DNA from: Acidobacteriaceae bacterium | GTDB taxonomy: Bacteria; Acidobacteriota; Terriglobia; Terriglobales; Acidobacteriaceae | Assembly: GCA_030041515.1 (NCBI GenBank) | Contig: JASHNS010000081.1 | Span: 1 to 64,000 of the forward strand | Reading direction: 5' to 3' | Length of the DNA: 64,000 bases | Shown here: piece by piece, positions 14,109-50,335 of the stretch | How the letters are laid out: each line of letters begins with the position of its first letter | How positions within the stretch are numbered: the first letter of the stretch is position 1 | The notes under the pieces: generated by a model | Told to the model about the DNA's origin: nothing | The model's database searches: none | Seen by the model: the letters and a program-made list of their open reading frames with translations, nothing else | Made by a program: the position numbers and the translations under genes

Positions 14109-14271
14109 TGAAACTTCTCCGATGGGGCGAGACAGTTGAGGTGCCAAGAGAGGACGCGAGCGCATTCGCGAGCTGATGTTGGCGCTCGCGCGCGTACGAA
14201 ACGCCTTCAGCAGCCAGAGAGATGATTGTATTGACGAGGGCGGAAACGCTTCAAATTCTGGCATAGGAGCA

Positions 14272-15465
14272 CTACTGAGTGGAGGGTGGCGGGACAGGTT
14301 CTCCCTGCGCATTCAGCGGCGTGCCGTAACAGGGATCGATACGGACGGTGCCGACGACAGGTTTGGCCGGCCAGATGTAGGGGTGCTGCACGACCGAGCG
14401 ACGCGTACCGATGACGACCTCCAGCTTCCAGGAGGACACGTTGCGGATGGGCAGGATGGAACCGTCGGCCGTGAACTGGAGCGGGGGCGCCCAGTACTGG
14501 AGGTCATGGCCCTTTTCGCCATCCGGGCGGGACAACCAGCGGTCTGCCATCCACATGTAGGCGATGCCGTCGGGGGTGGGAATCTGGGCAACATACGTCT
14601 GCTGTGCGTGGACGATCGGCTCGCCGCCGGAGATGTTGATATTCGCGATCTGGTGGTACGGTCCCAGGGGATGGGAGGCTACGAGGACGCGGGCGCCGCT
14701 GCCGGCTTTGCAGAAGCAGCAGGTGTGATCGAACAGGGCGTAATAGATGTTGCCGCGGCGAAAAAGCGCAGGAGCTTCGCAGTTTCTGGCGAGGATGGCA
14801 CTGGCCTCCCCGGTGGAGGAGAGGAAGTCGGGGGCAAGGCGCTCAATGCGGATGGCATGATGCTCGTCGATGGTGGTGTAGATGAAGTAGCCTGTGCCGT
14901 CCTTGTCGACAAACAAGCTGCCGTCGCCAGGATGGTCCTGCGCATGAGAAAGATTTGCGCGGGTGCTGACGATGGTGAACGGGCCCACCGGCGTTTCGCT
15001 GACGGCAATGCCCACCCGGCCATCCCAGAGTTTGGGATACCAGTTGTACCAGAGGACGTATTTGTGGGTGTGGGGGTTGTATGCGACGTAGGGCCGATAG
15101 TAGATGCCGTCGGGCGGCGACTTGAGCAGCTCCCCGTCAAAGGTCCAGTGTACGAGGTCGGGCGAACTGTAGACGCGGAAGCGGTTGTTGATCGTGTAGC
15201 CGGCGGTCTTACCGTAGGCGGTTCCGTAGAGGTAGTAGCGGCCCTGGAAGAAATGAAGGCAACCGTCGTGGGCGTCCAGGATATGTCCCTGCGTATCGAG
15301 GCGCGGAACGTCATTGTGGATGGTGACGACGCGGGCCCGCGCTGTTGCGGGCCGAGCTGCCGGCGCGATCAGACACGCCAACACAGCGGGAAGAAGCACA
15401 AATCGGAGACCCTTTTTACGATGAAGATCCACAGCCTGAAGGAAGCCAGCAGCGATTCGCAGCAC
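14272..15465 (-). CDS. secreted GH43-like five-bladed beta-propeller glycosidase
   Basis: A 397-residue protein with an N-terminal signal (FVLLPAVLACLIAPAARPATA). It shows the GH43/GH-F clan propeller pattern: DAHDGCLHFFQGRYYLYG with the first-blade acidic position, HPGDGSLFVDKDGTGYFIYT, EAPALFRRGNIYYALFDH with the probable acid glutamate, and YVAQIPTPDGIAYMWMADRW. The pattern of an alanine-histidine in the first motif recalls the galactan 1,3-beta-galactosidase-like subfamilies rather than arabinanases; this is a weak guess. The start used is GTG with AGGA upstream; a slightly later GTG is possible. It is upstream of GH97 on the same strand with 163 bp between them, and together they suggest attack on galactose- or arabinose-rich side chains. 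Confidence 0.85.
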   Translation of the reverse strand: MLRIAAGFLQAVDLHRKKGLRFVLLPAVLACLIAPAARPATARARVVTIHNDVPRLDTQGHILDAHDGCLHFFQGRYYLYGTAYGKTAGYTINNRFRVYSSPDLVHWTFDGELLKSPPDGIYYRPYVAYNPHTHKYVLWYNWYPKLWDGRVGIAVSETPVGPFTIVSTRANLSHAQDHPGDGSLFVDKDGTGYFIYTTIDEHHAIRIERLAPDFLSSTGEASAILARNCEAPALFRRGNIYYALFDHTCCFCKAGSGARVLVASHPLGPYHQIANINISGGEPIVHAQQTYVAQIPTPDGIAYMWMADRWLSRPDGEKGHDLQYWAPPLQFTADGSILPIRNVSSWKLEVVIGTRRSVVQHPYIWPAKPVVGTVRIDPCYGTPLNAQGEPVPPPSTQ

Positions 15466-18090: not shown

Positions 18091-19935
18091 TTGGTTTCCC
18101 GCCGCATCTTTACAAAGAGCTTCTTCGCTTCGTTGATGGCCTGCGGCGTGGACGTCTCCCTGCTGCCGGGAATCGCGCAACAATCGCCGATGGGTGGCAG
18201 CTCGACAGGGGCCGCACAAAAGGCAGTCTACGATGCGGAGCACAGGCCCATCACCGCCGGCGGCTTCGTCAAATCGGGTCCGATGGTCTTCCAGGACATC
18301 ACGAAAGGCACCGGCCTGGATACCTGGATGCACGTGATGGGCACCAGGCAGAAAAAGTTCATTATCGACGTTGCCGGCTCCGGCGTGGGGCTCATCGATT
18401 ACGACAACGATGGATGGCTCGATATTTACCTCGTGAATGGATCGACCTACGAGGCCATGGAGGGCAAAGCTCCTCCACCCCGTGCTGCACTCTTCCATAA
18501 CAACCGCGACGGGACCTTCACCGATATCGCCGAACAAGCAGGAGTATTGAACGAACGCTGGGGATTCGGCGTCGTGGTCGCCGACTTCGACAATGACGGA
18601 TGGCCCGACCTTTATGTCACAAACTTTGGAAAGAATCGCCTGTACCGCAACAATCATAACGGCACGTTTACCGACGTTGCCGAGCAGGCCGGCGTCACTT
18701 TGGACAACTGGTCGACCGGAGCTACGTGGGGGGATATTGACGGCGACGGACGGCTGGATCTCTTTGTGCCGGGATACATTCATTACGACCTGAGGAACCC
18801 GCCGATTCCGGAAAGCAAGGCTGTCTCCTACTCGTCCTGCAATTATCGGGGTGTGCAGACCATGTGTGGTCCGCGCGGATTGAAGGGCGAACCGGATCAT
18901 CTCTTCCACAACAACGGAGACGGCACGTTTACCGATGTGAGCGTGAAGGCAGGCGTCAGCGATCCCAACGGCTATTACGGGTTTACGGGAGTTTTTGCCG
19001 ACTTCAGCGACGACGGAAAGCCCGATTTGGCCGTGGCTGACGATTCCACCCCGAACTATTTTTATGTCAATAAAGGGAACGGGACGTTCGAGGACGCAAG
19101 CTTCGCCTCAGGTTTTGCGCTCAATGAAGAAGGACGCGAGACAGCGAGCATGGGACTGGCTGTCGGCGATTACGACAACGACGGCAGGCTCGACATCGCG
19201 GTTACAGATTTCTCTGACGATTATTACCTGCTCTACCACAATGACGGGCAGGCGAACTTCACCGACGTCAGCTATCAGACGGGCATTGCCGCCCCTACTA
19301 TTCCGTTCCTGGGGTGGGGCATCGCCTTCATCGATTACGACAATGACGGATGGAAAGACCTGATGATGGTGAACGGCCACGTCTATCCCCAGGTGGACCA
19401 GCAGGAGTGGGGCATGACGTACGCCGAGCGGCCGCTGCTGTTTCACAATCAGAAGGGACAGAAATTCGATCTGGTGCCTGCGGTGGAGGGAACAGGTCTG
19501 GCGGACGTCATCCCGGGCCGGGGTGCAGCCTTCGGCGATTTGTTCAACGAGGGCAGGATCGATGTGGTCATCAACGTCATCGACCAGCATCCGGTTCTGC
19601 TGCGCAACGTTTGTGAGAATGGCAACCACTGGGTGAAATTCAGGCTGATCGGCGGATCCAGGAGCCCGCGCGATGCTGTGGGAGCGAAGATGTTTGTGAC
19701 CGCCAATGGCATACGCCAGCGGTGTGACGTTCTAAGCGGGGGCAGCTATCTGTCGTCGAGCGATCAGCGGCTGCATTTCGGGCTGGGATCGGCCGCTACC
19801 CTGGAAGACGTGGAGGTGCACTGGCCCAGTGGCGCTGTCGAAAAGCTGCGCGTGCCCCAGCCAGACCGTATCTACACAGTCGAAGAAGGCAAGGGCATTA
19901 CCGGCGAACTCAAGCCCGCCAGCAGGAAATCCTGA
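18091..19935 (+). CDS. CRTAC1-family FG-GAP/ASPIC-UnbV exported protein
   Basis: A 614-residue protein starting with TTG at 18091 (GGAG 8 nt upstream). The N-terminus, SRRIFTKSFFASLMACG, looks like a Tat or Tat-like signal. The body is a chain of FG-GAP repeats with calcium-binding loops of the form DYDNDGWLDIY, DFDNDGWPDLYV, DIDGDGRLDLFV and DYDNDGRLDIAV, alternating with N-x-x-G-T-F-x-D motifs, and it closes with an ASPIC/UnbV-type domain (HWVKFRLIGGSRSPRDAVGA, then VHWPSGAVEKLRV). Such integrin-alpha-like beta-propellers are extracellular or periplasmic binding proteins of mostly unknown ligand. A paralogue lies at 21159, and GH43 and GH51 enzymes surround both, which suggests polysaccharide binding as a working idea only. 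Confidence 0.9.
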   Translation: MVSRRIFTKSFFASLMACGVDVSLLPGIAQQSPMGGSSTGAAQKAVYDAEHRPITAGGFVKSGPMVFQDITKGTGLDTWMHVMGTRQKKFIIDVAGSGVGLIDYDNDGWLDIYLVNGSTYEAMEGKAPPPRAALFHNNRDGTFTDIAEQAGVLNERWGFGVVVADFDNDGWPDLYVTNFGKNRLYRNNHNGTFTDVAEQAGVTLDNWSTGATWGDIDGDGRLDLFVPGYIHYDLRNPPIPESKAVSYSSCNYRGVQTMCGPRGLKGEPDHLFHNNGDGTFTDVSVKAGVSDPNGYYGFTGVFADFSDDGKPDLAVADDSTPNYFYVNKGNGTFEDASFASGFALNEEGRETASMGLAVGDYDNDGRLDIAVTDFSDDYYLLYHNDGQANFTDVSYQTGIAAPTIPFLGWGIAFIDYDNDGWKDLMMVNGHVYPQVDQQEWGMTYAERPLLFHNQKGQKFDLVPAVEGTGLADVIPGRGAAFGDLFNEGRIDVVINVIDQHPVLLRNVCENGNHWVKFRLIGGSRSPRDAVGAKMFVTANGIRQRCDVLSGGSYLSSSDQRLHFGLGSAATLEDVEVHWPSGAVEKLRVPQPDRIYTVEEGKGITGELKPASRKS

Positions 19936-19961: not shown

Positions 19962-21080
19962 TCAGCGCTCTGTGTGTGCCGGCACAGGACTGCTGGAGGG
20001 CCAGTGCAAAGGCTCGTTGAGCGGCACGGGACGCCCAAAATTCGGCGTCCCGTCGGCGTTCCACGCAAATGGTTGTGCGCGGGGCGCCCGGTCTCCGCCG
20101 CAACCCTCATCAGGAGCTGGATTGGCATGATAGAGAATCCAGTCCTGTGTGCCGTCGGGCGATTTGAAGAAGGAATTGTGCCCGGTGGCATAAGCCATCG
20201 CCTTTGGCGACTGCCAGAACACCGGATGGTCGGATTTATGCCACGATGCCGGGTTCAGCAGATCGCTGTCTGCGGATGCGCGCAGCATTCCTAACTCGTA
20301 GTAATCCGTCCAGCAGCCGCTGGCGGAATAAATGAGGAAAATCGAATTTCCGTGCTTCAGAATCTCAGGTCCCTCGTTCACATTGACGTGGGGCACCGGC
20401 AGCACGTGATTGCGCGAGGGCAAGTCCCCGACGCGTTCCCACGGGTACTCCGGCTGTGAGAGCAGCGCGCGCGGACTCGAGACGGTCCAGGGATTACTCA
20501 ATTCCGCAATGTAGATGTTTTGTTGGCCGTTCTGGGTTCCCGGCCAGCCTGACCAGATGAGATAAAGGCGGTCGCGGTTCTGCGTGACCGTCGGATCGAT
20601 GGCCCATCGATCGGTGCTGTCGGCGACCTTGCCTTTCAAATGCCACTCCCCCTCGAGCGGATCGTGGGAGCAGTTCTGCACCACCCAGATACGATGAGTC
20701 TCGTTTGCGCCTGCATCGGCGGCAAAGTAGATGTACCAGCACCCGCGAAGAAAGTGAAGCTCGGGGGCCCAGATATCGTGGGAATAAGGCCCCGTGGCTG
20801 GCGGCAACCATACCACCTTATGCTCAGCGGCCGCGAGCTCCGGGACGCTGCGAGTCTTCCAGATCTCCAGGCTGTTCTGGGTGGTGTTCATGTAGTAGTA
20901 GAAGCCGTCTTTCCAGGTGATCCAGGGATCGGCACCCGTTGGCAGCAGAGGATTCACAAACGCATTCGCGGTCGGATGGCCAGCAGATGGTAAGGGGGTG
21001 GTCCGATTCTGTGCCTGGACCAGCGTTGCTGCGAAAAGCACGCAGGCGGTGAGGCACAGTGGCGCCAGCTTCCACGACAT
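19962..21080 (-). CDS. secreted GH43 glycosidase (arabinofuranosidase/arabinanase type)
   Basis: A 372-residue enzyme from ATG 21080 (MSWKLAPLCLTACVLFAATL, a clear signal peptide; AGG 9 nt upstream). All catalytic landmarks of GH43 are present: ADPWITWKDGFYYYM with the base aspartate, HDIWAPELHFLRGCWYIYFA, RWAIDPTV with the aspartate that tunes the acid, and NVNEGPEILKHGNSIFLIYS with the acid glutamate. The NEGPEIL form together with GHNSFFKSPDGTQDWILYHA is typical of the exo-alpha-arabinofuranosidase-like subfamily 26 and related groups. The likely substrate is arabinan or arabinose-decorated polysaccharide, consistent with GH51 3 kb away. It sits between the two CRTAC1 genes and converges with the first of them. 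Confidence 0.9.
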   Translation of the reverse strand: MSWKLAPLCLTACVLFAATLVQAQNRTTPLPSAGHPTANAFVNPLLPTGADPWITWKDGFYYYMNTTQNSLEIWKTRSVPELAAAEHKVVWLPPATGPYSHDIWAPELHFLRGCWYIYFAADAGANETHRIWVVQNCSHDPLEGEWHLKGKVADSTDRWAIDPTVTQNRDRLYLIWSGWPGTQNGQQNIYIAELSNPWTVSSPRALLSQPEYPWERVGDLPSRNHVLPVPHVNVNEGPEILKHGNSIFLIYSASGCWTDYYELGMLRASADSDLLNPASWHKSDHPVFWQSPKAMAYATGHNSFFKSPDGTQDWILYHANPAPDEGCGGDRAPRAQPFAWNADGTPNFGRPVPLNEPLHWPSSSPVPAHTER

Positions 21081-21158
21081 CGTAGACCTGCTTTCCCGGA
21101 TGCTCACCTGGCATCCCGCTGTGATCCCCTGCACGTGGGCATCCCCTGAACGCGGACG

Positions 21159-22907
21159 TCACGTCTCGACGGGTTCATCGATGCGAAGGATCTGGTCGCT
21201 CTTCACCTGGTGCAGAACCTGATGAATCCCGCTCGGCCACTGAATCTCAATGGACGTTGCTACCGTGTCTGATCCCAGTCCGAAGTGGGCCCGTTTGTCG
21301 CTGGATGAGCAATAACTGCCGCCAGTGCTGACGGTCCACCACTGCGGGCCTTTTGAAGTCGTGAGCTTGATGACCGCGCCGATCGCGTCGCGATTGCTCT
21401 TATGTCCCACAAGCAACAGCGTAATCCAGTGATTGTCGCTCGGCGTCACGTTGCGCACCACATAAGCCGGTCCGTCGTTGGTGGTGACGACCACATCGAC
21501 GCGCCCGTCATTGTCGATATCGCCTCGGGCCAGGCCGCGGCCCGCCCACCTCTCCTGAAAAATCTCGCCCGACTCCGGCGAAACATCCGCAAACTTCCCG
21601 CCTCCGATGTTGTGCAGCAGGAGCATCGGTTCGCGGTAATGCAGGTCGGGGAATTGCAGATGAATGTTGTCGATGACGTGCCCCTGCGCGACGATCAGAT
21701 CCTTGAGCCCGTCGTTGTCGTAATCGAAAAAGCACACGCCCCAGCCGGAATGAAGGAGCGAGACGCCGCCGATGCCGGACGTATAACTCGCGTAGTTGAA
21801 CGTGCCGTCACCATTGTTCTGGTAGAGCGCGTACTTTTGATTCGCGAGATTCGTGACGATGAGATCGGGCAGCCCATCGTTGTTGTAATCCTGGAAGTCG
21901 GTTCCCATGCCCGCATAGGTATTGCCCATTCCATCGACCGCGACCTCGCTCAGCAATCCCTCTTCGGTGAGCGTGCCGTTGCCATTGTTGTGATAGAGAA
22001 ACTCCGTCATGGAGTCATTGGAAACGAAGAGATCGATATGCCCATCGCGGTCGAAGTCGGCCACTGAGGCCCCCAGTCCCTTGCCGGGCTTCATGCCGGC
22101 TTTGGCAGCAACTTCGGTAAAGCGGCCGTTCCCTTCGTTGTGATAAACGAGCGGCATGATCGGAGGAAAGAGGTCGGGGTGGCAATAGGCCCGGTATCCA
22201 GGGCGATGCTCCCCGCACCAAATGTCTGCAAAGTCCCACTTCATGTAGCGCAGCACGACCAGGTCGAGCAGGCCGTCGTTATCCAGATCCACCCACACGG
22301 CGCTGGTGCACCAGCCGCTGCCTCCGGTACCGGATTGTTCGGTGACGTCGGTAAAGGTGCCGTCGCCGTTGTTGTGGTACAGCCGGTTGCCGCCATATCC
22401 GGTCACATACAGGTCCTGATAGCCGTCGTTGTCGTAGTCCCCGACGGCTACGCCCATGTCATAACCGACGCCCTGTAGCCCCGCTTTCTCCGTCACATCT
22501 TCGAATGTCCCATCGGGCTTTTGATGATAGAGGCGATTCCAATATTCAGGGCCGCCCTTCTTCGGGATCGTACCCGGCGGCGTCGGATCGGAGATCGGAG
22601 CGCCGTTGACAAAGAAAATGTCCAGGCGGCCATCGTTGTCGAAGTCAAAGAGAGCCACACCGGAGCCCATCGTCTCGGGCAGATATTTCTTCGAGGTGTG
22701 GGAGGCTCTTCCGACGAAGCGGATCCCGCTCGCTTCTGTGACGTCGATAAATTGTCCCGCGCCGCTGCTGCTTTTCTGCTCTGGCTGCTGGCTGCGCTTT
22801 TGCAAGGCGGACTGAGGTGCGTACGGCGACATTGCCAATCCGCTTCGCCTGCCCGCCAGCACTCCTCCGAGCGCAACGGCCGACTTAAGAAAATTGCGAC
22901 GATGCAT
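21159..22907 (-). CDS. CRTAC1-family FG-GAP/ASPIC-UnbV exported protein (paralogue)
   Basis: A 582-residue protein beginning MHRRNFLKSAVALGGVLAGRR, a Tat signal. It has the same layout as the protein at 18091: repeated FG-GAP loops (DFDNDGRLDIFFVNG, DYDNDGYQDLYVTGY, DLDNDGLLDLVVLRY, DFDRDGHIDLFVSND, DYNNDGLPDLIVTN, DIDNDGRVDVVVT) and a C-terminal ASPIC/UnbV region (HWITLLLVGHKSNRDAIGA, then IEIQWPSGIHQVLHQV). The repeats bind calcium in related proteins. The role is probably extracytoplasmic binding. It is divergent from the GH51 gene with about 200 bp between the starts, and precedes the GH43 gene at 21080 on the same strand by 78 bp, so it may be co-transcribed with that enzyme. Confidence 0.9.
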   Translation of the reverse strand: MHRRNFLKSAVALGGVLAGRRSGLAMSPYAPQSALQKRSQQPEQKSSSGAGQFIDVTEASGIRFVGRASHTSKKYLPETMGSGVALFDFDNDGRLDIFFVNGAPISDPTPPGTIPKKGGPEYWNRLYHQKPDGTFEDVTEKAGLQGVGYDMGVAVGDYDNDGYQDLYVTGYGGNRLYHNNGDGTFTDVTEQSGTGGSGWCTSAVWVDLDNDGLLDLVVLRYMKWDFADIWCGEHRPGYRAYCHPDLFPPIMPLVYHNEGNGRFTEVAAKAGMKPGKGLGASVADFDRDGHIDLFVSNDSMTEFLYHNNGNGTLTEEGLLSEVAVDGMGNTYAGMGTDFQDYNNDGLPDLIVTNLANQKYALYQNNGDGTFNYASYTSGIGGVSLLHSGWGVCFFDYDNDGLKDLIVAQGHVIDNIHLQFPDLHYREPMLLLHNIGGGKFADVSPESGEIFQERWAGRGLARGDIDNDGRVDVVVTTNDGPAYVVRNVTPSDNHWITLLLVGHKSNRDAIGAVIKLTTSKGPQWWTVSTGGSYCSSSDKRAHFGLGSDTVATSIEIQWPSGIHQVLHQVKSDQILRIDEPVET

Positions 22908-25201: not shown

Positions 25202-25840
25202 GTGGCAAAGAGTCCCCACCCCATCAAGGTGCTGGTCGTCGACGACCATCCGGTTGTCCGTGTCGGTTTGCGCACCATGCTGGAAAGTGAAACCAACATT
25301 TCTGTTGTGGGCATGGCGGCGTCCGCAAGAGAAGCGCTGATTGCCCTCCAGCACTGCGCGCCGGACGTGGTTCTGATGGACCTCCGCATGCCCGAGATGG
25401 AAGGCACCGCCGCTATCCGCGAATTGCGGCGCATTCAGCCGAAGCTGCCGATCCTCGTGCTGACGAATTATGAGACGGATTCCTACATCATGGAGGCTCT
25501 GGAGGCGGGGGCGATGGGGTATCTGCTGAAAAGTACACCTCAGGCTGAATTAGTCAGAGCAGTGGAGAAAGTCCACGCCAATCAGCGGGTCATCCCTCCC
25601 AGAATCGCCGCTCGTCTGCTCGAGAATATAGGTCGAGATGAGTTGAGCGCGCGGGAGCTTGAGGTTCTGGCGCTCGTCGCTCGCGGCCTGAGCAATAAGG
25701 AGATCGCCGATGCGCTCTCCATCAGTGACAAGACGGTGCGCAACCACGTCGCAAGCTGCCTCGTAAAGCTGGGCGTTGCAGACCGAACCGGCGCAGTCAC
25801 AACCGCGATCCGGCGGGGGTTGATCCGAATCTCCGAATAG
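25202..25840 (+). CDS. NarL/FixJ-family response regulator
   Basis: A 212-residue cytoplasmic transcription regulator with a GTG start. The receiver domain (residues 8-125) has the acidic pair in VLVVDDHP, phosphoacceptor Asp60 in VVLMDLRMPEMEG, the switch threonine in VLTNYE and the conserved lysine in YLLKSTP. The C-terminal LuxR-type helix-turn-helix (about 145-210) reads LSARELEVLALVARGLSNKE, then ISDKTVRNHVASCLVKLGV. It converges with the sensor kinase gene at 25882, 41 bp away, which carries the matching HisKA_3 domain; these are almost certainly a pair although not in one operon. GH51 ends 49 bp upstream, so the regulator may be read through from it. Targets are unknown; the flanking enzymes and receptor are candidates. 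Confidence 0.93.
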   Translation: MAKSPHPIKVLVVDDHPVVRVGLRTMLESETNISVVGMAASAREALIALQHCAPDVVLMDLRMPEMEGTAAIRELRRIQPKLPILVLTNYETDSYIMEALEAGAMGYLLKSTPQAELVRAVEKVHANQRVIPPRIAARLLENIGRDELSARELEVLALVARGLSNKEIADALSISDKTVRNHVASCLVKLGVADRTGAVTTAIRRGLIRISE

Positions 25841-25881: not shown

Positions 25882-27405
25882 CTAGCCCGCGGCAGCCTGT
25901 CCCAGGATTTTCCACAGCCTGGCCTTGGTTTCGAGAAAGATACGCGTGCGAAGCCTCTCATGTTGCAGCGCGGCCTTTACCGACACACGCGTACCCGACT
26001 CCGGGCTGCTGGTGATTTCCAGGCTTGCCCCCACATCCCGGGCGTGTTTCTGCATACCCAGAATTCCAAAGCCGGCAGATTCCGGCTTGTAGTCGAAGCC
26101 ACACCCATTGTCTTCGACCACCAGCTCCACCTGGTCGCCCGCATACGAAAGCGTCAGCTGCAGCAGCGTCGGTTCGGCATAGCTGATGGCGTTTACGATT
26201 GCTTCCCTGCCTATATGCAGCAGCGCGTCCGCAAGGCGAAGGTTCAGGGATCCCGCATTGCCGCGCAACTCGGGAACGACCCTGATCTGGGTGCCCGCAA
26301 TACCGGTTGCAATGTCCGTGAGAGCCGTCAGAACATTTTCCTGAAATGACGGCGACCGCGAGCCCAGCATCGCGATCGTTCGACTGGCCTCTTCGTGACA
26401 CTTCCTCACCAGCTGATAGGCGACGTTCAACTGCGCTGTTATCTCCATGACCTCGGCGCCCTCCGCGCTGGTCAGCCTGTGCCGGATTCCCTGAATCTGA
26501 TACCCGATGCCGGCGAAGCTCTGTGCCATCGTGTCGTGGATTTCGTGAGCAAATCGTTCGCGTTCGCGCATGATCGTGTTGCTCTTCCATTGCCGCATGC
26601 GGAAGTAAAAAAGCTGAAGGACCAGCATCACAGCGAAGATCCCGCCAAAAAGCAGAACCGCGTGCCAGGGAGTCCACCATGGAGGTCCCGGCAGTACTTC
26701 CAGCCGCTCGAGGTACGCGGCCTGCCGGCGGATCGCCAGATAATCGTTCAGGCTCGCCGGCGCAACGCTGATGTTCCGCCACATACCTCCCGCGTTGAGC
26801 GAGCGCAGGCCGATGCGACCGCTGGCAAGACAGTAGGGTTCATGGAGGGCCGTTGCCGCGGATTGAAGCGTTTTCAGGTTCACGACCGAAGCCGCGATGT
26901 CGCACCCGTAAGCTGTGACCACCAGCCGGTACCAGATCATGGGCTGAACACCGCCGGGAATCAGGACGGGACGAGCTTCCCGCCAGCCAAAATCGGATCG
27001 GCCCAGCACCAGGGTTCCGTCCAGAGTACGGACACCGACGTAGTACCCGTCGTAGGTGTCCGTGCCCTCGCGTTCATCGTTCGTGCGCACGACCACGCCC
27101 ATATCGGCATTCGTCCCGCTAAACCGAAGGTCGGTCTTCAACGTATAGTTTCGCCAGTAGCTGGAACCGGTGAGCAGCTTGGCCCCGCGCTCATAGGAGT
27201 TGTTGTAGACGATGCCATCGATCATCTCCCATTTGCCCCCGACGGCCTGCCACTGGTTCTGCTCGGCAGCTACCAGCGGGTACGCGCGGTGCGGAACGAT
27301 GCTGTCGACGACGCGTCTGTGAATCCACCATGCTGCAAACAGAATGAAGGCGCTCGCGATCCAGATCGCTGCTCCCCGCCTCCAGCGTGATTTTCCAAAA
27401 GACAT
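25882..27405 (-). CDS. NarL-type sensor histidine kinase with jelly-roll (DUF1080/LamG-like) sensor domain
   Basis: A 507-residue kinase from ATG 27405 (GGGGAG 6 nt upstream); a longer frame is less likely. Order: transmembrane segment about residues 11-28 (IWIASAFILFAAWW), an extracytoplasmic domain of some 215 residues, a second membrane segment (AVLLFGGIFAVMLVLQLFYF), a HisKA_3 dimerisation domain with the phosphoacceptor in FAHEIHDTMAQ, and an ATPase domain (VEDNGCGFDY and GFGILGMQKHARDVGA). The outer part (WQAVGGKWEMIDGIVYNN, LLTGSSYWRNYTLKTDLRF, GVVVRTNDE, YYVGVRTLDG) looks like the concanavalin-like fold of 3-keto-disaccharide hydrolase/LamG domains. This would fit sensing of a saccharide; that is inference. 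Partner: the regulator ending at 25840. Confidence 0.9.
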   Translation of the reverse strand: MSFGKSRWRRGAAIWIASAFILFAAWWIHRRVVDSIVPHRAYPLVAAEQNQWQAVGGKWEMIDGIVYNNSYERGAKLLTGSSYWRNYTLKTDLRFSGTNADMGVVVRTNDEREGTDTYDGYYVGVRTLDGTLVLGRSDFGWREARPVLIPGGVQPMIWYRLVVTAYGCDIAASVVNLKTLQSAATALHEPYCLASGRIGLRSLNAGGMWRNISVAPASLNDYLAIRRQAAYLERLEVLPGPPWWTPWHAVLLFGGIFAVMLVLQLFYFRMRQWKSNTIMRERERFAHEIHDTMAQSFAGIGYQIQGIRHRLTSAEGAEVMEITAQLNVAYQLVRKCHEEASRTIAMLGSRSPSFQENVLTALTDIATGIAGTQIRVVPELRGNAGSLNLRLADALLHIGREAIVNAISYAEPTLLQLTLSYAGDQVELVVEDNGCGFDYKPESAGFGILGMQKHARDVGASLEITSSPESGTRVSVKAALQHERLRTRIFLETKARLWKILGQAAAG

Positions 27406-27663
27406 TGCCAGCTCCCCATGAACGGCTTGCGGTGCGCCAACGGTGCGGGGTCGAATTTTACACCACACGCCTGCCGGCACGCGATTCCCCTGCGAAGCTC
27501 TGCCCTGGGTGCTGTCGCAGCCCCGGAAAACTAAATCCTGCCTGCGGGGCAACCAGGACGCTGGGTCATTTGTACTAACGAACGCTGGGCCATTAACCCC
27601 TTGTGCGCCTCCGGAATCGAAGCCTACGATTCGCGATGTGATTTGTTTACATCCCTGGAATTA

Positions 27664-27744: not shown

Positions 27745-30700
27745 ATGAAAGGCCTGCGGGACACGGCCCTTTGGGGGCTGACTCTGGCTGTTCTCCTTGC
27801 TCTGGCAACGTCTGTAGTCCGGGCGCAAACCGTGTTCGGGAGTATCTCCGGCACGGTCTCCGATCCAACCGGCGCAGTTGTCCCCAACGCGAAAGTGCAG
27901 GCCATCGGCGAGAGCACCGGGACGAAGCTCGACGGCGTGACCACATCGGCTGGAGCCTTCCATTTCCCCGAGGTCCCCATCGGCCTCTACGACCTCATTG
28001 TCACCGCTCCCGGTTTTCAGGTCTCCAAAACGACCGGCGTCCGCGTCAATCTGCAGATCACGACCGGCGTCAACGTGACCCTTAAAGTCGGCTCCGCGAC
28101 GCAAACCGTCACCGTCAATGGCCAGGGCCTGCGGCTTCAGACGCAGAGTTCTGACATCACCGGATCGATCAGCAACGAAGAATATTTGAAATTGCCCCTC
28201 ACTCTGGGGGGCGTAGGCGCGCTCCGTTCCCCGGAAGCGTTTATCTTCCTGCTCCCCGGTAACACGGGGCCCGGTACCAGCAACAATACTGACAACGGCG
28301 TGTTCTTTGACAAGCTCGCCGGCGGCCAGGACTTCGGCGCCGAAGTGCTCATCGACGGCCTGAGCCAGCAGCGCAGCGAAAACGGCTCCTCGTTCGACGA
28401 GGAAGCGCCTTCGGTGGACGCTTTGCAGGAGCTCACCGTTACGGATGCCGTGCCTCCCGCCGAGTACAACCGCACGACCGGCGGCATCGAAAACTTTGCC
28501 ACCAAGAGCGGCACCAACAAGTTCCATGGCATGGCCTACGAGATCCTGCGCAACACGGATCTCGACGCGGATCTTTGGTTCAATAATGGGTTCCGAGCAG
28601 AGAATTGCACCGGCACGAGCAATACGCCCGCCTGCCGCGCTCAATATGCAACGCCCGCCGATCAAAAGAACGATTACGGCGGCACGCTGGGAGGCCCGGT
28701 GCTGATTCCGAAACTCTACAACGGCCGCAACAAGCTCTTCTTCTTTTTCTCCTGGGAGCAACTCCGCTACAGTCTCGGGGCTACCACGGTAACGACCGTC
28801 CCCACGCCGCAGGAACTCTCCGGCGACTTCTCCAATCCAGCGTTTTACAATCCCAGCGTCGTGGAGGGAACCAATCCCTGCACCGGAGGACCCGTCTACC
28901 AGGGACAAATCTTCGATCCCACAACCACGACCGTGGTCGGCGGCGTTGAGTGCCGGACTCCCTACCCCGGCAACAAAATCCCCGCGTCCGATGCGGGTGA
29001 GTTATCCAAAGCGGCCGCTGCGGCGCTGGCCTATTTCCCAGCTCCGACAAACGGGAATGTCTTCAATAATTATGTCTTTTCCAGCACGTCCCCGATTATC
29101 AATACCGCCGAGACGATTCGCATCGACAGCAACATCGGCCCCAGGAATCATATCTGGAGTTCGTACAGTTCTCGCGAGAATGACCGCGTCTCGGGCACAC
29201 CCCAGATCCTGCCGTATCCGATCGACCCGAACACCTGGAAGCAGGATTTCACAACGCACTTCTGGCGCTTTGGCTGGGACTTGAACCTGACTCCTGATCT
29301 GCTCAACGACGTCATCGTAGGTTCCAACCGCTCCAACAGCGTCAATTATGCGTTCCCGCTGTTTCAGGGGATCAATTACGCGCAGAAGTTAGGCATTGGG
29401 AACGCTGTATCCCTCAATTTCCCACAGTTCACGAATGGCATTACGGCAAATGAAGGCAATCCGGCGCAGAACGACGACAATGTCGATAACGGGCTGCGCT
29501 TCGTCGACAATCTTTCCTGGCTGAAAGGTGCGCAGAGCATCACCTTTGGCGCGGATGAACGATACCAGCAATACTCGCCCATCGATGGAAATTCCCCCAC
29601 GCTCAACTTCTGCAGCGCACAAACCTCAGCGTATCCGGGCTCCTCGAATAACGGGAATGCACTTGCCAGCGAACTGCTGGGCGACGCGTGTGGTGGCACT
29701 CAGAACCTCTACTATCACCAGTCGCGATGGATATCGTGGTACTTCTCGGGCTATGTCCAGGACAACTGGAGAGTGAAACATGACCTTACGCTGAACCTCG
29801 GCGTGAACTACAGCGTGGACGTCCCCCGCCGGGAGGCGGATAACGATACTTCCGACTTCAGCGCGACTGCCATTGATCCCGAAACGGGCACGCCAGGTGC
29901 CCTCGTTTTTGGCTCGCAGTGCAGCGGCTGCAACACCCGATGGGCGAACACCTATTACAAGGACATTGCACCGCGCATCGGATTCGCCTATTCACCGCCG
30001 TGGATGAACAACAAGACGGTCGTTCGCGGCGGCGGAGGAATTCTTTACGGCCCGCTGCAATACGACGACTTTGGCGGATCCATGGACGCCGGTTACAAGT
30101 CCAGCCCTGTCTTCCCGTCGAAGAACGGTTTCGACCCTTCGTTCGAGATCGACAATGGATACCCGGCGTTCCCATCCCCTCCTGATCTGGATCCAGGACT
30201 CTACAACGGTGCTTATCTGCCCGGTTCGTATATCGAAACGATTGCCGGACGTCCGGCCGAAATCTACAACTGGGATCTGGATGTTCAGCAACAGGTGATG
30301 CAGAATCTTGTCCTCAGCGTCGGCTATATCGGAAGCGAGGCGCAAAATCTCCAGGCGAACAACCAGAACATCAACAATGTGCCCTACAACAAGGAATTCA
30401 GCACGGGCGGCAAGGAGCTGAACGCTCCTCTCCTCAACAACACCTACGGAGTCGCAACCCCATTCCCGAATTACTACAATATCTGGGGCAATGGTGTCAC
30501 GATCCAGCAGGCTCTGCGTCCGTTTCCGCAGTACGACTTTATCGACTCCGGATGCTGCCTCCAGGCCACGGGGCACTCCAGCTACGACGCTTTGCTCGTG
30601 TCGCTGCAGGGCAACTTTAAAGACCTGACACTGCAGGGGTCATACACCTGGGCGAAAACGCTCGACGATAACGACAGTATCCTCCCCAATACAAACCCGG

Positions 30701-31440
30701 GACAGCCGCAGGTCCAGGATCCGGCGGATCTGCATCTGGAAAAAGCCATCAGCATTCAGGATCTGCCGAATACGTTTGTTGTCAGCTACACCTACTCGCT
30801 GCCGGCCGGGAAAGGTCAGCGCTATATGTCCCATGGCATCGGCAGCTATGTCCTGGGGGGGTGGCAGATTGGAGGTATCCAGCGTTATCAGGATGGCGAG
30901 CCGCTGGCTTTTTGCTGCGCCACTGGGATCCCAGGATGGGAGCAGTCGATCTACTACGACCTGATTCCGGGTGTTCCGATTAAGAGCGCGGTCTACCGAA
31001 GCGGATGGAAGCACATTAATCCGTTCAATGACGCCAACGGCAGCGATCCGAGCACGAACAGCTTCTTCAATGCGGCGGATACGACCACGGCGGCAGCGTA
31101 TGTAACTGGCGGGGCGCAACCAGCCTTTCACGACCAGGTGCGGGAGGTGAACGTGCTGAACTCCCAGCCGGGGAATAACCTGCCCTACACCCTGGGCGAC
31201 GTACCCCGCGTTACCGGCATTCGCATGCCGGCGTGGATGGAAGAGGACTTCAGCCTGATCAAGAATACGAACATTACTGAGCGGTTGACGTTTCAGTTAA
31301 AGGCGGACTTCCTGAATGCGCCGAACCGCCATATTTTCGGCGCGCCGGACACGAATCCAGCGGACTACGACTTCGGCATTCCGACCTACCAATCGAACGC
31401 TCCACGGGCCATACAAATCAACGGAACGCTTTTGTTTTAA
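27745..31440 (+). CDS. Oar-type TonB-dependent receptor with carboxypeptidase-regulatory-like domain
   Basis: An outer-membrane receptor of 1231 residues from ATG 27745, which has GGAGG 4 nt upstream. The signal peptide is ALWGLTLAVLLALATSVVRAQ. The CarboxypepD_reg-like domain (about 34-115) has GSISGTVSDPTGAVVPNAKV and GLYDLIVTAPGF. The plug-like part follows (VLIDGLSQQRSENGSSFDEE), then the barrel, with DNWRVKHDLTLNLGVNYSVD late in the chain and the terminal strand IQINGTLLF ending in phenylalanine. It is directly followed by a strong hairpin terminator. A putative inverted-repeat operator precedes it, and the sensor kinase gene with a sugar-binding-like domain is divergent from it, so this receptor is a natural candidate for carbohydrate-linked control. 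Confidence 0.92.
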   Translation: MKGLRDTALWGLTLAVLLALATSVVRAQTVFGSISGTVSDPTGAVVPNAKVQAIGESTGTKLDGVTTSAGAFHFPEVPIGLYDLIVTAPGFQVSKTTGVRVNLQITTGVNVTLKVGSATQTVTVNGQGLRLQTQSSDITGSISNEEYLKLPLTLGGVGALRSPEAFIFLLPGNTGPGTSNNTDNGVFFDKLAGGQDFGAEVLIDGLSQQRSENGSSFDEEAPSVDALQELTVTDAVPPAEYNRTTGGIENFATKSGTNKFHGMAYEILRNTDLDADLWFNNGFRAENCTGTSNTPACRAQYATPADQKNDYGGTLGGPVLIPKLYNGRNKLFFFFSWEQLRYSLGATTVTTVPTPQELSGDFSNPAFYNPSVVEGTNPCTGGPVYQGQIFDPTTTTVVGGVECRTPYPGNKIPASDAGELSKAAAAALAYFPAPTNGNVFNNYVFSSTSPIINTAETIRIDSNIGPRNHIWSSYSSRENDRVSGTPQILPYPIDPNTWKQDFTTHFWRFGWDLNLTPDLLNDVIVGSNRSNSVNYAFPLFQGINYAQKLGIGNAVSLNFPQFTNGITANEGNPAQNDDNVDNGLRFVDNLSWLKGAQSITFGADERYQQYSPIDGNSPTLNFCSAQTSAYPGSSNNGNALASELLGDACGGTQNLYYHQSRWISWYFSGYVQDNWRVKHDLTLNLGVNYSVDVPRREADNDTSDFSATAIDPETGTPGALVFGSQCSGCNTRWANTYYKDIAPRIGFAYSPPWMNNKTVVRGGGGILYGPLQYDDFGGSMDAGYKSSPVFPSKNGFDPSFEIDNGYPAFPSPPDLDPGLYNGAYLPGSYIETIAGRPAEIYNWDLDVQQQVMQNLVLSVGYIGSEAQNLQANNQNINNVPYNKEFSTGGKELNAPLLNNTYGVATPFPNYYNIWGNGVTIQQALRPFPQYDFIDSGCCLQATGHSSYDALLVSLQGNFKDLTLQGSYTWAKTLDDNDSILPNTNPGQPQVQDPADLHLEKAISIQDLPNTFVVSYTYSLPAGKGQRYMSHGIGSYVLGGWQIGGIQRYQDGEPLAFCCATGIPGWEQSIYYDLIPGVPIKSAVYRSGWKHINPFNDANGSDPSTNSFFNAADTTTAAAYVTGGAQPAFHDQVREVNVLNSQPGNNLPYTLGDVPRVTGIRMPAWMEEDFSLIKNTNITERLTFQLKADFLNAPNRHIFGAPDTNPADYDFGIPTYQSNAPRAIQINGTLLF

Positions 31441-31539: not shown

Positions 31540-33630
31540 GTGACCAGGTTGCCCTTCTCTGGAATGTTGCCACTTTGGGCAATTGCTGTCTGTGCCGTCT
31601 CCTTGCCTGCTCAGCAGCCGATAACGGTCCGAACGCCCGCGACTCCTCTCGTGCTGCACGATCCCTACTTCAGTATTTGGTCCTTTGACGATGCGTTGAC
31701 GGCGGGGCCTACGCGACACTGGACCGGGACGGAGCAGCAACTGAACGGCTCGATTCGCATTGATGGCCGGACATTCCGCTTCATGGGAGATGACTCGGAT
31801 TTTCCGCCGCTGCCCCAGGTAAAGCGGACCATCTGGCCCACCCGTACCATCTACGACTTCGAAGGCCAGGGCATCCATCTCACCGCAACTTTCTTCACGC
31901 CCGCATTGCCCCGCGACCTGGATGTCCTCTCCAGGCCGCTCACATATCTCACCTGGACCGCACGCTCGGTGGACGGACGATCCCATTCCGTTCACATCGC
32001 GGTGAGTGCGAGCGCTCAGCTCGCCGTCAACGACGGCCATGAACCCGTGGTGTGGGGATCGAGCCGCGTCGGCGATATGACCGTGATGCATGTTGGTACC
32101 GGCGCGCAGCCGATGCTCGCGAAGGCCGGAGATAACCTCCGCATTGACTGGGGCTGGGCGGATCTCGCCGTTCCGCACCAGCCGGATATGTCCACGGAGA
32201 TCGTGGGATTGCAGGAATTCCAGAAGGAGGAGGAGAAAGGCGAGCCGGCAGACAGCGACGACCTGGATATGCCTCGGCCTCCACGCGTCGATCTTCCCGT
32301 CATGGCCGTCTTCTTCAACCTGGGCCAGGTATTCGCAACGCCCGTTACGCGCGAGGCTATGCTGGCCTACGACGATCGGAGAGCGATCGAATTTCTGCAC
32401 CGGCAACTACCGGACTACTGGCGGCGCAACGGGCAGACCATGGCGCAAATGCTGCTGGAGGCCGAACGCGAAGAAGATCCGCTGCGTTCTCGTGCGATCG
32501 CTTTCGATCACGCGCTGGCCTCCGATCTGGAACAGGCGGGAGGCCAGGAATACGAGCAGCTCGCCATCCTTGCCTATCGGCAAAGCATCGCGGCCGGCAA
32601 ACTGGTCGTCGACATCGATGGAACGCCTTTGTACTTTTCCAAGGAAAATTCCAGCAACGGCTGCACGGATACCGTGGATGTCACGTATCCAGCCTCGCCG
32701 CTTTTCCTGTTGCTGAATCCGAAGCTGCTGGAAGCGGAATTACGGCCCGTGATGCAATATGCCAGCCTGCCGCGCTGGCCCTGGCCATTTGCGCCACACG
32801 ATCTGGGAACCTATCCCCTGGCCAACGGGCAGGTCTACGGAGGCGGCACAACCAGCGAGGTAGACCAGATGCCGGTCGAGGAAAGCGGCAATATGCTCAT
32901 TCTCTTCGACGCGGTCGCCCACGCCGAAGGCAATGCCGATTTCGCAGCCCTCTACTGGCCCCTGTTATCGCGATGGGCCGACTATCTGCGAGCCAACGGA
33001 CTCGATCCTGGCAACCAGCTCAGCACAGACGATTTCACCGGTCACCTGGCGCACAATGCCAATCTCTCGATCAAGGCGATCATCGCCATCGGCAGCTATG
33101 CGCAGCTCGCCCAAATGCTGCACAAGGACGCCGTGGCTTCCAGTTATCGTCAGGACGCCCGGAAGATGGCCCTGCAATGGATGCGGATGTCTGCGGACGG
33201 CGATCACACTCGGCTGGCCTTCGATCTTCCCGGTACCTGGAGCCAGAAATATAACCTCGTATGGGATCGCATTCTCGGTCTCCAGCTCTTTCCGCCGTCG
33301 GTTGCGCAGGAAGAAGTCCGGTTTTACCTGCGACATCAGAATGAGTTTGGATTACCTCTCGACAACCGCCATACCTATACCAAGCTGGACTGGAGCGTGT
33401 GGACGGCCACGCTGGCTGACAACCAGCATGATTTTGAAACGATGATCCATCCCCTTTATCGCTTTATGACGGAAACGCCGACACGGGTTCCGCTGAGCGA
33501 TTGGTTCGACACGGTCACGGGAGCCCAGGTTGGGTTTCAGGCCCGCTCGGTTGTCGGCGGGATCTATATCAGGATGCTGGCTGATCCTGAATTATGGAAG
33601 AAGTGGGCGTCGTCCGCGGGAGCGCCCTGA
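31540..33630 (+). CDS. secreted DUF4965/glutaminase-like protein
   Basis: A 696-residue protein with a signal peptide (MLPLWAIAVCAVSLPAQ); the GTG at 31540 has GAGG 8 nt upstream. It opens like the DUF5127-DUF4965-DUF1793 proteins annotated as glutaminase GtaA-like: TPATPLVLHDPYFSIWSFDD and GTEQQLNGSIRIDGRTFRFMG. The middle and C-terminal (alpha/alpha)6-like part has YFSKENSSNGCTDTVDVTYP, PWPFAPHDLGTYPLANGQVYG, MPVEESGNMLILFDA and DNRHTYTKLDWSVW. In this group the true reaction is often unknown; several relatives are carbohydrate-active rather than amidases, and the receptor and CAZyme neighbourhood here favours that. It is probably periplasmic. A terminator separates it from the receptor gene. 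Confidence 0.85.
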   Translation: MTRLPFSGMLPLWAIAVCAVSLPAQQPITVRTPATPLVLHDPYFSIWSFDDALTAGPTRHWTGTEQQLNGSIRIDGRTFRFMGDDSDFPPLPQVKRTIWPTRTIYDFEGQGIHLTATFFTPALPRDLDVLSRPLTYLTWTARSVDGRSHSVHIAVSASAQLAVNDGHEPVVWGSSRVGDMTVMHVGTGAQPMLAKAGDNLRIDWGWADLAVPHQPDMSTEIVGLQEFQKEEEKGEPADSDDLDMPRPPRVDLPVMAVFFNLGQVFATPVTREAMLAYDDRRAIEFLHRQLPDYWRRNGQTMAQMLLEAEREEDPLRSRAIAFDHALASDLEQAGGQEYEQLAILAYRQSIAAGKLVVDIDGTPLYFSKENSSNGCTDTVDVTYPASPLFLLLNPKLLEAELRPVMQYASLPRWPWPFAPHDLGTYPLANGQVYGGGTTSEVDQMPVEESGNMLILFDAVAHAEGNADFAALYWPLLSRWADYLRANGLDPGNQLSTDDFTGHLAHNANLSIKAIIAIGSYAQLAQMLHKDAVASSYRQDARKMALQWMRMSADGDHTRLAFDLPGTWSQKYNLVWDRILGLQLFPPSVAQEEVRFYLRHQNEFGLPLDNRHTYTKLDWSVWTATLADNQHDFETMIHPLYRFMTETPTRVPLSDWFDTVTGAQVGFQARSVVGGIYIRMLADPELWKKWASSAGAP

Positions 33631-43300: not shown

Positions 43301-43588
43301 ATTGGTCCGCACGACCTCACGAAACCCGGGACTGGTGGCGCTCACTTCGTACATCCCCGGTGGCAGCAGCGGGAGCGTATACGCGCCCAGCGCATCGGTC
43401 CGCGTCTCTCGAACCGTGTCCGTGGCCAGATTTCTGGCGCGCACCACCGCATTCACGATCACGGCGCGCTGCTGGTCCTGGACGGTTCCGCGCACTGAGC
43501 CGGTGGCGTCCAGTGCGGCTGCGCAACCGCAACCGGCGGCCATCCAGATGGGAATCAGAATCAGAGCAGCTCGCATCGCGCTCTTCAC
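40340..43588 (-). CDS. Oar-type TonB-dependent receptor with carboxypeptidase-regulatory-like domain
   Basis: An outer-membrane receptor of 1082 residues, smaller than the other two in the window. The start used is GTG 43588 with AAGG upstream; an ATG at 43576 is also possible. Signal peptide: ALILIPIWMAAGCGCAAAL. The carboxypeptidase-regulatory-like domain has GSVRGTVQDQQRAVIVNAVV and PPGMYEVSATSPGFREV. The plug has LPLNERNFLTFGLLAAGSEP, and YFLLDGVDNNDPFLNQWSVL follows. Barrel strands end in LQLGIRYSF with terminal phenylalanine. It converges with the PadR/MacB-like unit and is divergent from the Ser/Thr kinase at 43781, sharing a 192-bp intergenic region with it. The substrate is unknown. 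Confidence 0.92.
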   Translation of the reverse strand: MKSAMRAALILIPIWMAAGCGCAAALDATGSVRGTVQDQQRAVIVNAVVRARNLATDTVRETRTDALGAYTLPLLPPGMYEVSATSPGFREVVRTNVRVEIDSFVEVDFVLPVGGVHEQVTVNGEPPLIQSRNGTVGEVIDATRIAALPLNERNFLTFGLLAAGSEPGTDGSQNTLLGSAISLDGVREQSNYFLLDGVDNNDPFLNQWSVLPSVEAILEFKVQSSNSSAEYGRVAGGQINVAIKSGGDHFHGSAFEFLRNRNMDAKNYFDLPACQPGSVPGTCGSIPPFDRDQFGGSLGGPIRRGRTFFFVADEELSMRQAITREATVPSLELREGLLAALPPPAISSAGATVLSLIPDANVGDPLTSTRYIAAPLLTETDQMPIVRLDDHISPIDTVSGHYAVYDQNRFDPFDPGVPSFSNLPGYGSPEDTLGQNLGISWVHVFGPSTINEAKFGFNRNTFGGYLSNQGSQTIPGFATMLNRPVDRGYPDVELTGYDGIGGSTSFPMDRRNDTFNIANNLAWHPAFNRGRHQMNFGVDYLNIGNNSYIDEFSRGFWDFLGVTGNSVEDLLLGIPAIAVSVSGNTEADLRTSDTALYAQDDIRATARLTLNAGLRYEYSSPPFDTGNRMSIPNLSASSATCSPQPACMFILAGTDGIPRGIYRPDRDDFAPRAGFAWRPLNTDRYVVRSAYGIFYDVTILNTNFGSRLNPPYYPIETWVNSGTQNIQTIFDSPIVYPLAFTMPENFRDAYVQEWDFGNQIEAAKGLVFDLAYVGSKGTRLPLRLNVNQPEPGGIPPFPQFSTVQQIQSTADSTYNSLQARAVRRYNNGLEFLAAYTWSKSIDNSSQLFSTAVDPGFPQNSNNLRSERALSDFDARHRFVASYVYQAPSLANGRGFARGVLPVLLSHWTFGGITTVQTGRPFTVNRAVLQSRTGLQPYIDRPDQVSDPMKPGPVMANADPTCYKTVSEGGRAADATRTAASWFNPCAFSDPNLLGEYRFGTAPRNSVIGPGFVDFDISVQRNQQIREGGSLQLRADLFNIFNHPNFDVPDRIFDSATFGQLVSANAYGNRPPRQLQLGIRYSF

Positions 43589-50330: not shown

Positions 50331-50335
50331 GCGCT

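What the first reader, a model, noticed from the sequence alone, without database searches (positions are those of the whole stretch)
25882..27405. Histidine kinase with a sugar-binding-like jelly-roll sensor domain
The extracytoplasmic region resembles DUF1080/LamG-type concanavalin-like domains instead of usual sensor folds such as PAS or Cache. It stands between arabinose-directed enzymes and an Oar receptor, with its NarL-type partner next to it. This looks like a direct polysaccharide sensor controlling the surrounding genes.
Basis: partly seen in the sequence, partly recalled or inferred. Interest (0 to 1): 0.5.

Follow-up and report, generated by a model that had tools for sequence, protein, structure and literature searches.

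The report
Sugar-sensor kinase with lectin-like domain
A soil acidobacterium carries a membrane kinase whose outer sensor part has the fold of a sugar-binding module, and the DNA around it suggests that the kinase, through its partner regulator, controls a neighbouring outer-membrane receptor and itself; what it actually binds is not yet tested.

Summary
Window 25882-27405(-) is an intact HisKA_3 histidine kinase. Its extracytoplasmic region passes the Pfam cut-off for PF06439 (DUF1080) and is predicted with good confidence as a concanavalin-like jelly roll closest to CBM66 (Z 21.0). The LuxR-type regulator lies tail to tail with it.

Tools added four things. (1) Its relatives form a recurrent Acidobacteriota system: LacI-type binding protein, jelly-roll/OB-like kinase, LuxR regulator, usually beside an Oar-type receptor. 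All 53 OB-bearing fused kinases counted have the binding-protein gene adjacent. The window kinase belongs to a set that lacks both (0 of 13). (2) The same jelly-roll subfamily occurs as tandem modules on GH54 arabinofuranosidases and one GH39-like protein. (3) An 18-bp palindrome marks these loci; a matrix trained without the window puts its best site of 64 kb between kinase and receptor genes (27561-27578). (4) No such site stands before the arabinose genes.

So 'direct glycan sensor controlling the neighbourhood' is partly supported. Control of the receptor (with the putative glycosidase behind it) and of the kinase is a well-grounded inference. Direct sensing is likely but untested. Arabinan as the signal is weak: the two closest kinase relatives are in GH92 loci.

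The parts
25882..27405 (-). Histidine kinase, 507 aa (ORF opens at 27552; ATG 27405 preferred)
27319..27378 (-). Transmembrane segment 1, residues 10-29
   Evidence: hydropathy
26764..27258 (-). Jelly-roll sensor domain, PF06439, residues 50-214, CBM66-like fold; Cys168 and Cys192 conserved
26674..26688 (-). GPPWW linker before TM2 (in relatives it follows the OB-like region)
26596..26676 (-). Transmembrane segment 2, residues 244-270
   Evidence: hydropathy
26371..26565 (-). HisKA_3 dimerisation/phosphotransfer domain; presumed phospho-His 290
25969..26229 (-). HATPase_c domain
25202..25840 (+). LuxR/NarL-type response regulator, presumed phospho-Asp 60
27561..27578 (.). Predicted operator CTGGGTCATTTGTACTAA, best site in the 64 kb window
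27745..31440 (+). Oar-type TonB-dependent receptor (ORF opens at 27601); predicted target
31540..33630 (+). GtaA/DUF5127/DUF4964 protein, 99 bp after the receptor, same strand; probable glycosidase and probable co-target
   Evidence: passages of PMC9668830
23113..25152 (+). GH51-like alpha-L-arabinofuranosidase, neighbour, no operator found
19962..21134 (-). GH43 enzyme, neighbour, no operator found

Best explanation
The kinase is a two-component carbohydrate sensor. Its periplasmic jelly roll, similar in fold to CBM66 and related to modules on arabinofuranosidases, binds a glycan end or oligosaccharide that reaches the periplasm (inferred). The signal passes through the GPPWW linker and TM2 to the HisKA_3 core (inferred). 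The core phosphorylates the convergent LuxR-type regulator (inferred from adjacency in 13 of 13 loci). The regulator dimer binds the palindrome at 27561-27578 and switches on the receptor, probably with the DUF5127 glycosidase behind it, and the kinase gene (inferred from operator conservation). The window kinase derives from ancestors that also had an OB-like region and a LacI-type binding-protein partner; it lost both (supported by tree and gene content), so its jelly roll is probably the only dedicated ligand site left.
For: Fold. Intact catalytic motifs. Same jelly-roll subfamily (first modules 34-37% identical to the window's over 168 columns, second modules 25-28%, same Cys pair) in tandem behind GH54 catalytic domains in L179, L180, L182 (these three stretches had been fetched because they hold receptor homologues), and behind a GH39-like domain in L246. 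OB-bearing fused kinases: 53 of 53 with a binding-protein gene within 400 bp, same strand in every row; OB-less: 0 of 5 within 9 kb or to the contig end and 0 of 8 further ones in the fetched stretches of 12-20 kb. Regulator convergent in 13 of 13 OB-less loci. OB-less set nested in OB-bearing kin, 99/98 and 99/99 support. G011, with a 53%-identical kinase, has no family-type binding protein (best 79 bits; draft 85% complete). Operator matrix trained on 53 sites from OB-bearing and split loci only: window best 14.7, next 8.1; best site near a receptor/kinase/binding-protein/regulator start in 12 of 13 OB-less loci, 1.0 expected by area; 4 of 33 stretches without such a kinase, 1.1 expected. 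(60 training sites from all loci but the window): window site 16.9, median best of 50 Markov shuffles 10.4.
Against: No ligand binding, phosphotransfer or DNA binding was tested. The window site matches only 10 of 14 positions of the commonest consensus. The exact core pattern occurs at 3 places in the genome against 5 for the reversed control pattern, so alone it is not distinctive genome-wide. The motif was first noticed on upstream sequences that included the window's, one of nine seeds; later training left the window out, but the consensus used to collect sites came from that start. The palindrome could be bound by another regulator. A binding protein could act in trans: the genome has one family member, at C97, and nine other Peripla_BP_4 places, one of them below the cut-off. 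Neighbour enzymes differ between OB-less loci (GH92, GH31, DUF5127, none obvious among those examined), so one common glycan is unlikely.
Confidence: 0.58

Rival explanations
1. The jelly roll is a docking or structural part and the ligand is read by a LacI-type binding protein supplied in trans, as may happen in the relatives; the window kinase is a shortened copy that still depends on it.
For: All 53 OB-bearing fused kinases and the five split ones have that gene at hand; binding-protein and kinase reading frames overlap, ATGA in L058; solute-binding proteins that activate sensor kinases are known (abstract and passages of PMC11113362); the genome keeps one family member at C97.
Against: The gene was not found near any of the 13 OB-less kinases and no family member was found in the draft genome G011; binding protein and OB-like region are missing together, which fits loss of that input route.
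Confidence: 0.22
2. The kinase is specifically an arabinan sensor that controls the GH51 and GH43 genes around it.
For: Arabinose-directed neighbours; the receptor and GH51 are linked in many genomes; kinases of this family stand in 8 of 39 receptor-homologue stretches and 6 of the 8 best-scoring ones, from several distant kinase branches; related modules on GH54; CBM66 modules are reported on arabinanases (passages of PMC11002231).
Against: No operator near GH51 or GH43; a GH51 match near only 2 of 13 OB-less kinases; the closest relatives L241 and L244 are in loci with GH92; in the 18.7-kb stretch around the 53%-identical kinase (L038) nothing matched the window's GH51, GH43 or GtaA proteins (its neighbours were not run against Pfam).
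Confidence: 0.3
3. The jelly roll keeps 3-keto-disaccharide hydrolase activity and the kinase reads its own catalysis.
For: PF06439 membership; characterised members include 3-ketoglycoside hydrolases (passages of PMC9007349).
Against: The model scores higher against the binding module CBM66 (Z 21.0) than against DUF1080-type BT3469 (Z 18.6); the genome's strong PF06439 member (C70, 141.8 bits) does not match the jelly-roll profile at E<=1e-8. Catalytic residues were not compared.
Confidence: 0.04

Closest known systems
CBM66 (Bacillus subtilis SacC levanase module; Cohnella xanthanase module)
   Same: Same predicted fold, Z 21.0; CBM66-type modules are also reported on GH43 and GH32 enzymes, arabinanase among them (passages of PMC11002231)
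   Different: Here it is the input domain of a kinase; only 15% identity; binding residues not compared; no PDB chain found by sequence profile
DUF1080 / PF06439 3-ketoglycoside hydrolases (BT2157 type)
   Same: Pfam family above cut-off
   Different: Fused to a kinase; no evidence of activity
Kinases with solute-binding-protein partners (XylFII-LytS, LuxPQ; recalled, and named in the reference list of PMC11113362)
   Same: Relatives have an adjacent LacI-type binding protein
   Different: The window locus has none; jelly-roll and, in relatives, OB-like regions are present
NarX/NarL-type two-component systems
   Same: HisKA_3 kinase and GerE regulator
   Different: Different sensor domain; convergent gene order; palindrome ATAGTNCANNTGNACTAT in the family
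Bacteroidetes hybrid two-component systems beside SusC-like receptors (recalled)
   Same: Carbohydrate locus with receptor and dedicated sensor
   Different: Separate LuxR-type regulator rather than a fused AraC-type one; no propeller sensor

Membership tests
HisKA_3 / NarL-type two-component system | HisKA_3 and HATPase_c with H, N and G boxes; REC+GerE regulator next to it | tested here: met
PF06439 (DUF1080) | Whole-protein score over Pfam's cut-off | tested here: met
   29.7 against 26.8 bits
CBM66 | Jelly-roll fold of the CBM66 type | tested here: met
   Predicted model, Z 21.0, rmsd 2.1, 158 aligned
CBM66 | Sequence similarity to solved CBM66 chains | tested here: inconclusive
   No PDB chain at E<=10 with profile A4
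CBM66 | Conserved ligand-binding residues and glycan binding | not testable with these tools
   Primary CBM66 paper not held; no assay
3-keto-disaccharide hydrolase | Catalytic residues and activity | not tested
   -
Kinase with solute-binding-protein partner | Cognate binding-protein gene adjacent | tested here: not met
   None within 9 kb in the window; met in 53 of 53 OB-bearing fused relatives
LamG domain proteins | Match to a LamG Pfam model | tested here: inconclusive
   No LamG family listed at E<=1; the fold class is shared
Bacteroidetes hybrid two-component system | Kinase and regulator in one chain, AraC-type output (defining features recalled) | tested here: not met
   Two separate genes, GerE output

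The most novel reading that the evidence does not exclude
A family of carbohydrate sensors in Acidobacteriota, mostly Acidobacteriaceae, uses a CBM-like lectin domain as input. In one set the ancestral binding-protein co-receptor and its OB-like relay were lost, leaving a kinase that reads glycan ends directly and tunes an outer-membrane receptor through a family-wide palindromic operator. The enzyme-borne module and the sensor share one fold and subfamily, so sensor and enzyme specificity could have been exchanged during evolution.
Probability: 0.4. Interest if true: 0.72.

Novelty: new variant of a known kind. Interest (0 to 1): 0.6.

Why it matters
How soil acidobacteria sense the plant polymers they live on seems little studied (my impression; the four library searches below found nothing on it). 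If right, this gives them a dedicated sensor family with a recognisable operator, so regulons can be read from sequence. It also makes a comparison between binding-protein-mediated and direct glycan sensing possible within one family. No paper on such a kinase was found in the held library with the searches.

Tried and rejected
LamG: no Pfam match listed, dropped as a name. Searching PDB by sequence profile gave nothing. A shared motif between the kinase/receptor interval and the FG-GAP/GH51 interval was not above shuffles. The word TGTTTAC before the receptor was near background: 3 of 62 receptor upstreams in loci with a jelly-roll family protein and 3 of 34 without, shuffle means 1.85 and 0.85. 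The promoter/terminator scan found no more than chance. A single origin of the OB-less kinases is neither shown nor rejected: one branch at 90/83 with 5 rows, two changes with 13 rows, AU p 0.378. The tandem-OB reading of the middle region rests on weak Pfam hits (PF01336, below cut-off) and on Foldseek rows that fit the whole model poorly (8soj, 5z7d); no separate model was made. The VIA list for that model was filled by the jelly roll.

L065 counts among the 53 although its binding-protein gene reads in two pieces, and L098 although its jelly roll does. One search classed L062 and L240 as loci without a jelly-roll kinase; one search used a corrected rule (75 and 33 loci instead of 73 and 35). 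The receptor and GH51 searches scored at most 4 and 7 candidates per genome, so their counts are lower bounds. Pfam was run on 20 neighbour proteins of eight OB-less loci only.

Full report
What is there. The ORF at 25882-27552(-) encodes a histidine kinase; the preferred start is ATG 27405, giving 507 aa. Pfam places PF06439 (29.7 bits, cut-off 26.8), HisKA_3 and HATPase_c above their cut-offs. Hydrophobic segments at residues 10-29 and 244-270 enclose the PF06439 part, and the catalytic motifs are present. The LuxR-type regulator 25202-25840(+) is convergent with it.

Fold. A model of residues 29-246 built on 53 aligned rows has pLDDT 87.6 and pTM 0.86. Foldseek and VIA-align both put CBM66 first (4azz_A Z 21.0, rmsd 2.1, 158 aligned, 15% identity), ahead of DUF1080-type BT3469 (Z 18.6) and legume lectins (about 16). 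A shared fold does not show binding. CBM66 modules are reported to bind fructan ends or a xanthan side chain, and related modules occur on GH43 and GH32 enzymes, arabinanase among them (abstract and passages of PMC11002231). In the jelly-roll alignment of 53 rows the two cysteines are invariant.

Relatives. A pattern-based scan of genome contigs (one genome for each of 84,980 species) with the jelly roll of five kinases returned 54 loci, all titled as Acidobacteriota except L095, a 6-kb contig of a MAG titled Candidatus Binataceae. A profile search found the subfamily in 85 of 398 genomes of the window's family at E<=1e-30 (these include enzyme-borne and stand-alone copies). The usual layout is: LacI-type Peripla_BP_4 gene, kinase with jelly roll plus a middle region that looks like tandem OB folds, LuxR regulator, with an Oar-type receptor close by; a regulator was not seen in L055, L057, L066 and L087. 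Reading frames overlap, for example ATGA in L058. In one search, 58 fused kinases were counted: 53 have the OB-like region and all 53 have the binding-protein gene within 400 bp, on the same strand in every row; 5 lack the region and none of these has the gene within 9 kb or to the contig end (L046 is a 5.4-kb contig). Five further kinases lack a fused jelly roll; a separate jelly-roll gene stands beside each and the binding-protein gene is within 760 bp. Eight more OB-less kinases, picked by frame length, also lack a binding-protein gene in their stretches, giving 0 of 13. In these 13 the regulator is always convergent. A receptor was found near 12 of 13; L046 is the exception, L239 is a weak match at 40 bits and in L243 it is 4.7 kb away.

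Evolution. The 13 OB-less kinases lie inside OB-bearing kin with 99/98 and 99/99 support, so loss is the simplest reading. One or two losses cannot be told apart (AU p 0.378). The window kinase's nearest rows are L241 and L244 (98/92), both in loci with GH92 enzymes.

Link to arabinose enzymes. Receptor homologues at E<=1e-150 occur in 45 of 150 genomes of the order, GH51 homologues in 30 of 150, and many are neighbours (capped scoring, so lower bounds). Of 39 receptor loci examined (the window plus L173-L210), 8 have a jelly-roll kinase system in the stretch (WIN, L173, L174, L176, L177, L179, L184, L206), including 6 of the 8 with the highest scores. These kinases come from several distant branches. 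GH54 arabinofuranosidases with two jelly rolls of the same subfamily stand in L179, L180 and L182; these stretches had been chosen for their receptors, so the neighbourhood itself is no test. In L179 this gene is divergent from an OB-less kinase. A GH39-like protein in L246 has the same tandem modules. This supports a carbohydrate-binding role. Against a fixed arabinan signal: by match to the window's proteins, GH51 is near only WIN and L179 among the 13 OB-less loci, while GtaA/DUF5127 proteins are near 6 of 13 (WIN, L046, L237, L238, L242, L245). Pfam on 20 neighbours of eight OB-less loci gave GH92 in three (L238, L241, L244), GH31 in one (L241), and no glycosidase among those examined in L239 and L243. 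DUF5127 proteins are proposed to be glycosidases on probe labelling and a weak beta-galactosidase activity (passages of PMC9668830).

Operator. Upstream sequences of these loci contain the palindrome ATAGTNCANNTGNACTAT. I first noticed it by eye in receptor upstreams that included the window's; the window site was one of nine seeds. At 12 or more of 14 positions there are 62 sites in 73 loci with the system (46 loci), against 1 in a Markov-shuffled copy, and 4 in 35 loci classed as without. Of those four, L062 and L240 are cut or frame-split members of the family, L178 is a receptor upstream, and L180 lies before its GH54 gene. A matrix from 53 sites of OB-bearing and split loci, with no OB-less locus and no window sequence, gives the window site 27561-27578 the best score of 64 kb (14.7; next 8.1). 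The best site lies near a receptor, kinase, binding-protein or regulator start in 12 of 13 OB-less loci (1.0 expected by area), 43 of 62 others (7.0; these include the training loci) and 4 of 33 without (1.1; two of the four score 12 or more). With 60 training sites from all loci but the window, three of them added by hand, the window site scores 16.9 against a median shuffle maximum of 10.4. The window copy is imperfect (10 of 14). The exact core pattern TRGKNCANNTGNMCYA occurs at 3 places in the genome, reversed control 5. ORFs around the other two places showed me nothing that links them to carbohydrate use (L250, L251; not run against Pfam). No other window site scores above 9, and none of the high ones lies before GH51, GH43 or the FG-GAP gene. 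In L178 the receptor homologue has a 14-of-14 site without a jelly-roll kinase in the stretch, while that genome has a jelly-roll frame of 792 aa with a binding-protein gene before it elsewhere, which suggests control in trans.

Mechanism. Shown by computation: domains, fold prediction, gene order, association with binding proteins, operator conservation. Inferred: ligand binding by the jelly roll, phosphotransfer to the convergent regulator, binding of the regulator to the palindrome, activation of receptor, DUF5127 gene and kinase.

Literature. Library searches for such kinases found none; the library holds only openly licensed PMC papers, so this is not proof of absence. PMC9007349, PMC9668830, PMC11002231, PMC8715580, PMC9765024 and PMC11113362 were seen as passages; other papers only as search listings.

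Noticed in passing
L179:14322-16691, L180:5333-7453, L182:11870-13996: GH54 arabinofuranosidases carry two C-terminal jelly rolls of the sensor's subfamily (PF09206 382-395 bits); a 12-of-14 operator-like site lies about 280 bp before the one in L180.
   Followed up: partly
L246:431-3622: A GH39-like protein (44.8 bits) also ends in two such jelly rolls.
   Followed up: no
L037 (G000:C97): The same genome holds a split version of the system: separate jelly roll, OB-type kinase, binding protein, regulator and receptor, with MGH1-like/GH65C and weak GH130/GH32-like neighbours; GTGGTGCGGATGCACCAT lies before its receptor.
   Followed up: partly
L178:7833-7850: Perfect palindrome before a receptor homologue without a jelly-roll kinase in the stretch; possible control in trans.
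   Followed up: no
window 18091-19935 and 21159-22907: Two ASPIC/UnbV FG-GAP repeat proteins; similar ones recur near many receptor loci.
   Followed up: no
window 48219-50699 and 50336-52513: Two overlapping ORFs on the same strand, each with an NAD_binding_8 match.
   Followed up: no
window 12039-14312: GH97 enzyme; further Oar-type receptors at 5341-8901 and 40340-43588.
   Followed up: no
L095: The only locus titled outside Acidobacteriota; a 6-kb MAG contig, possibly misbinned.
   Followed up: no
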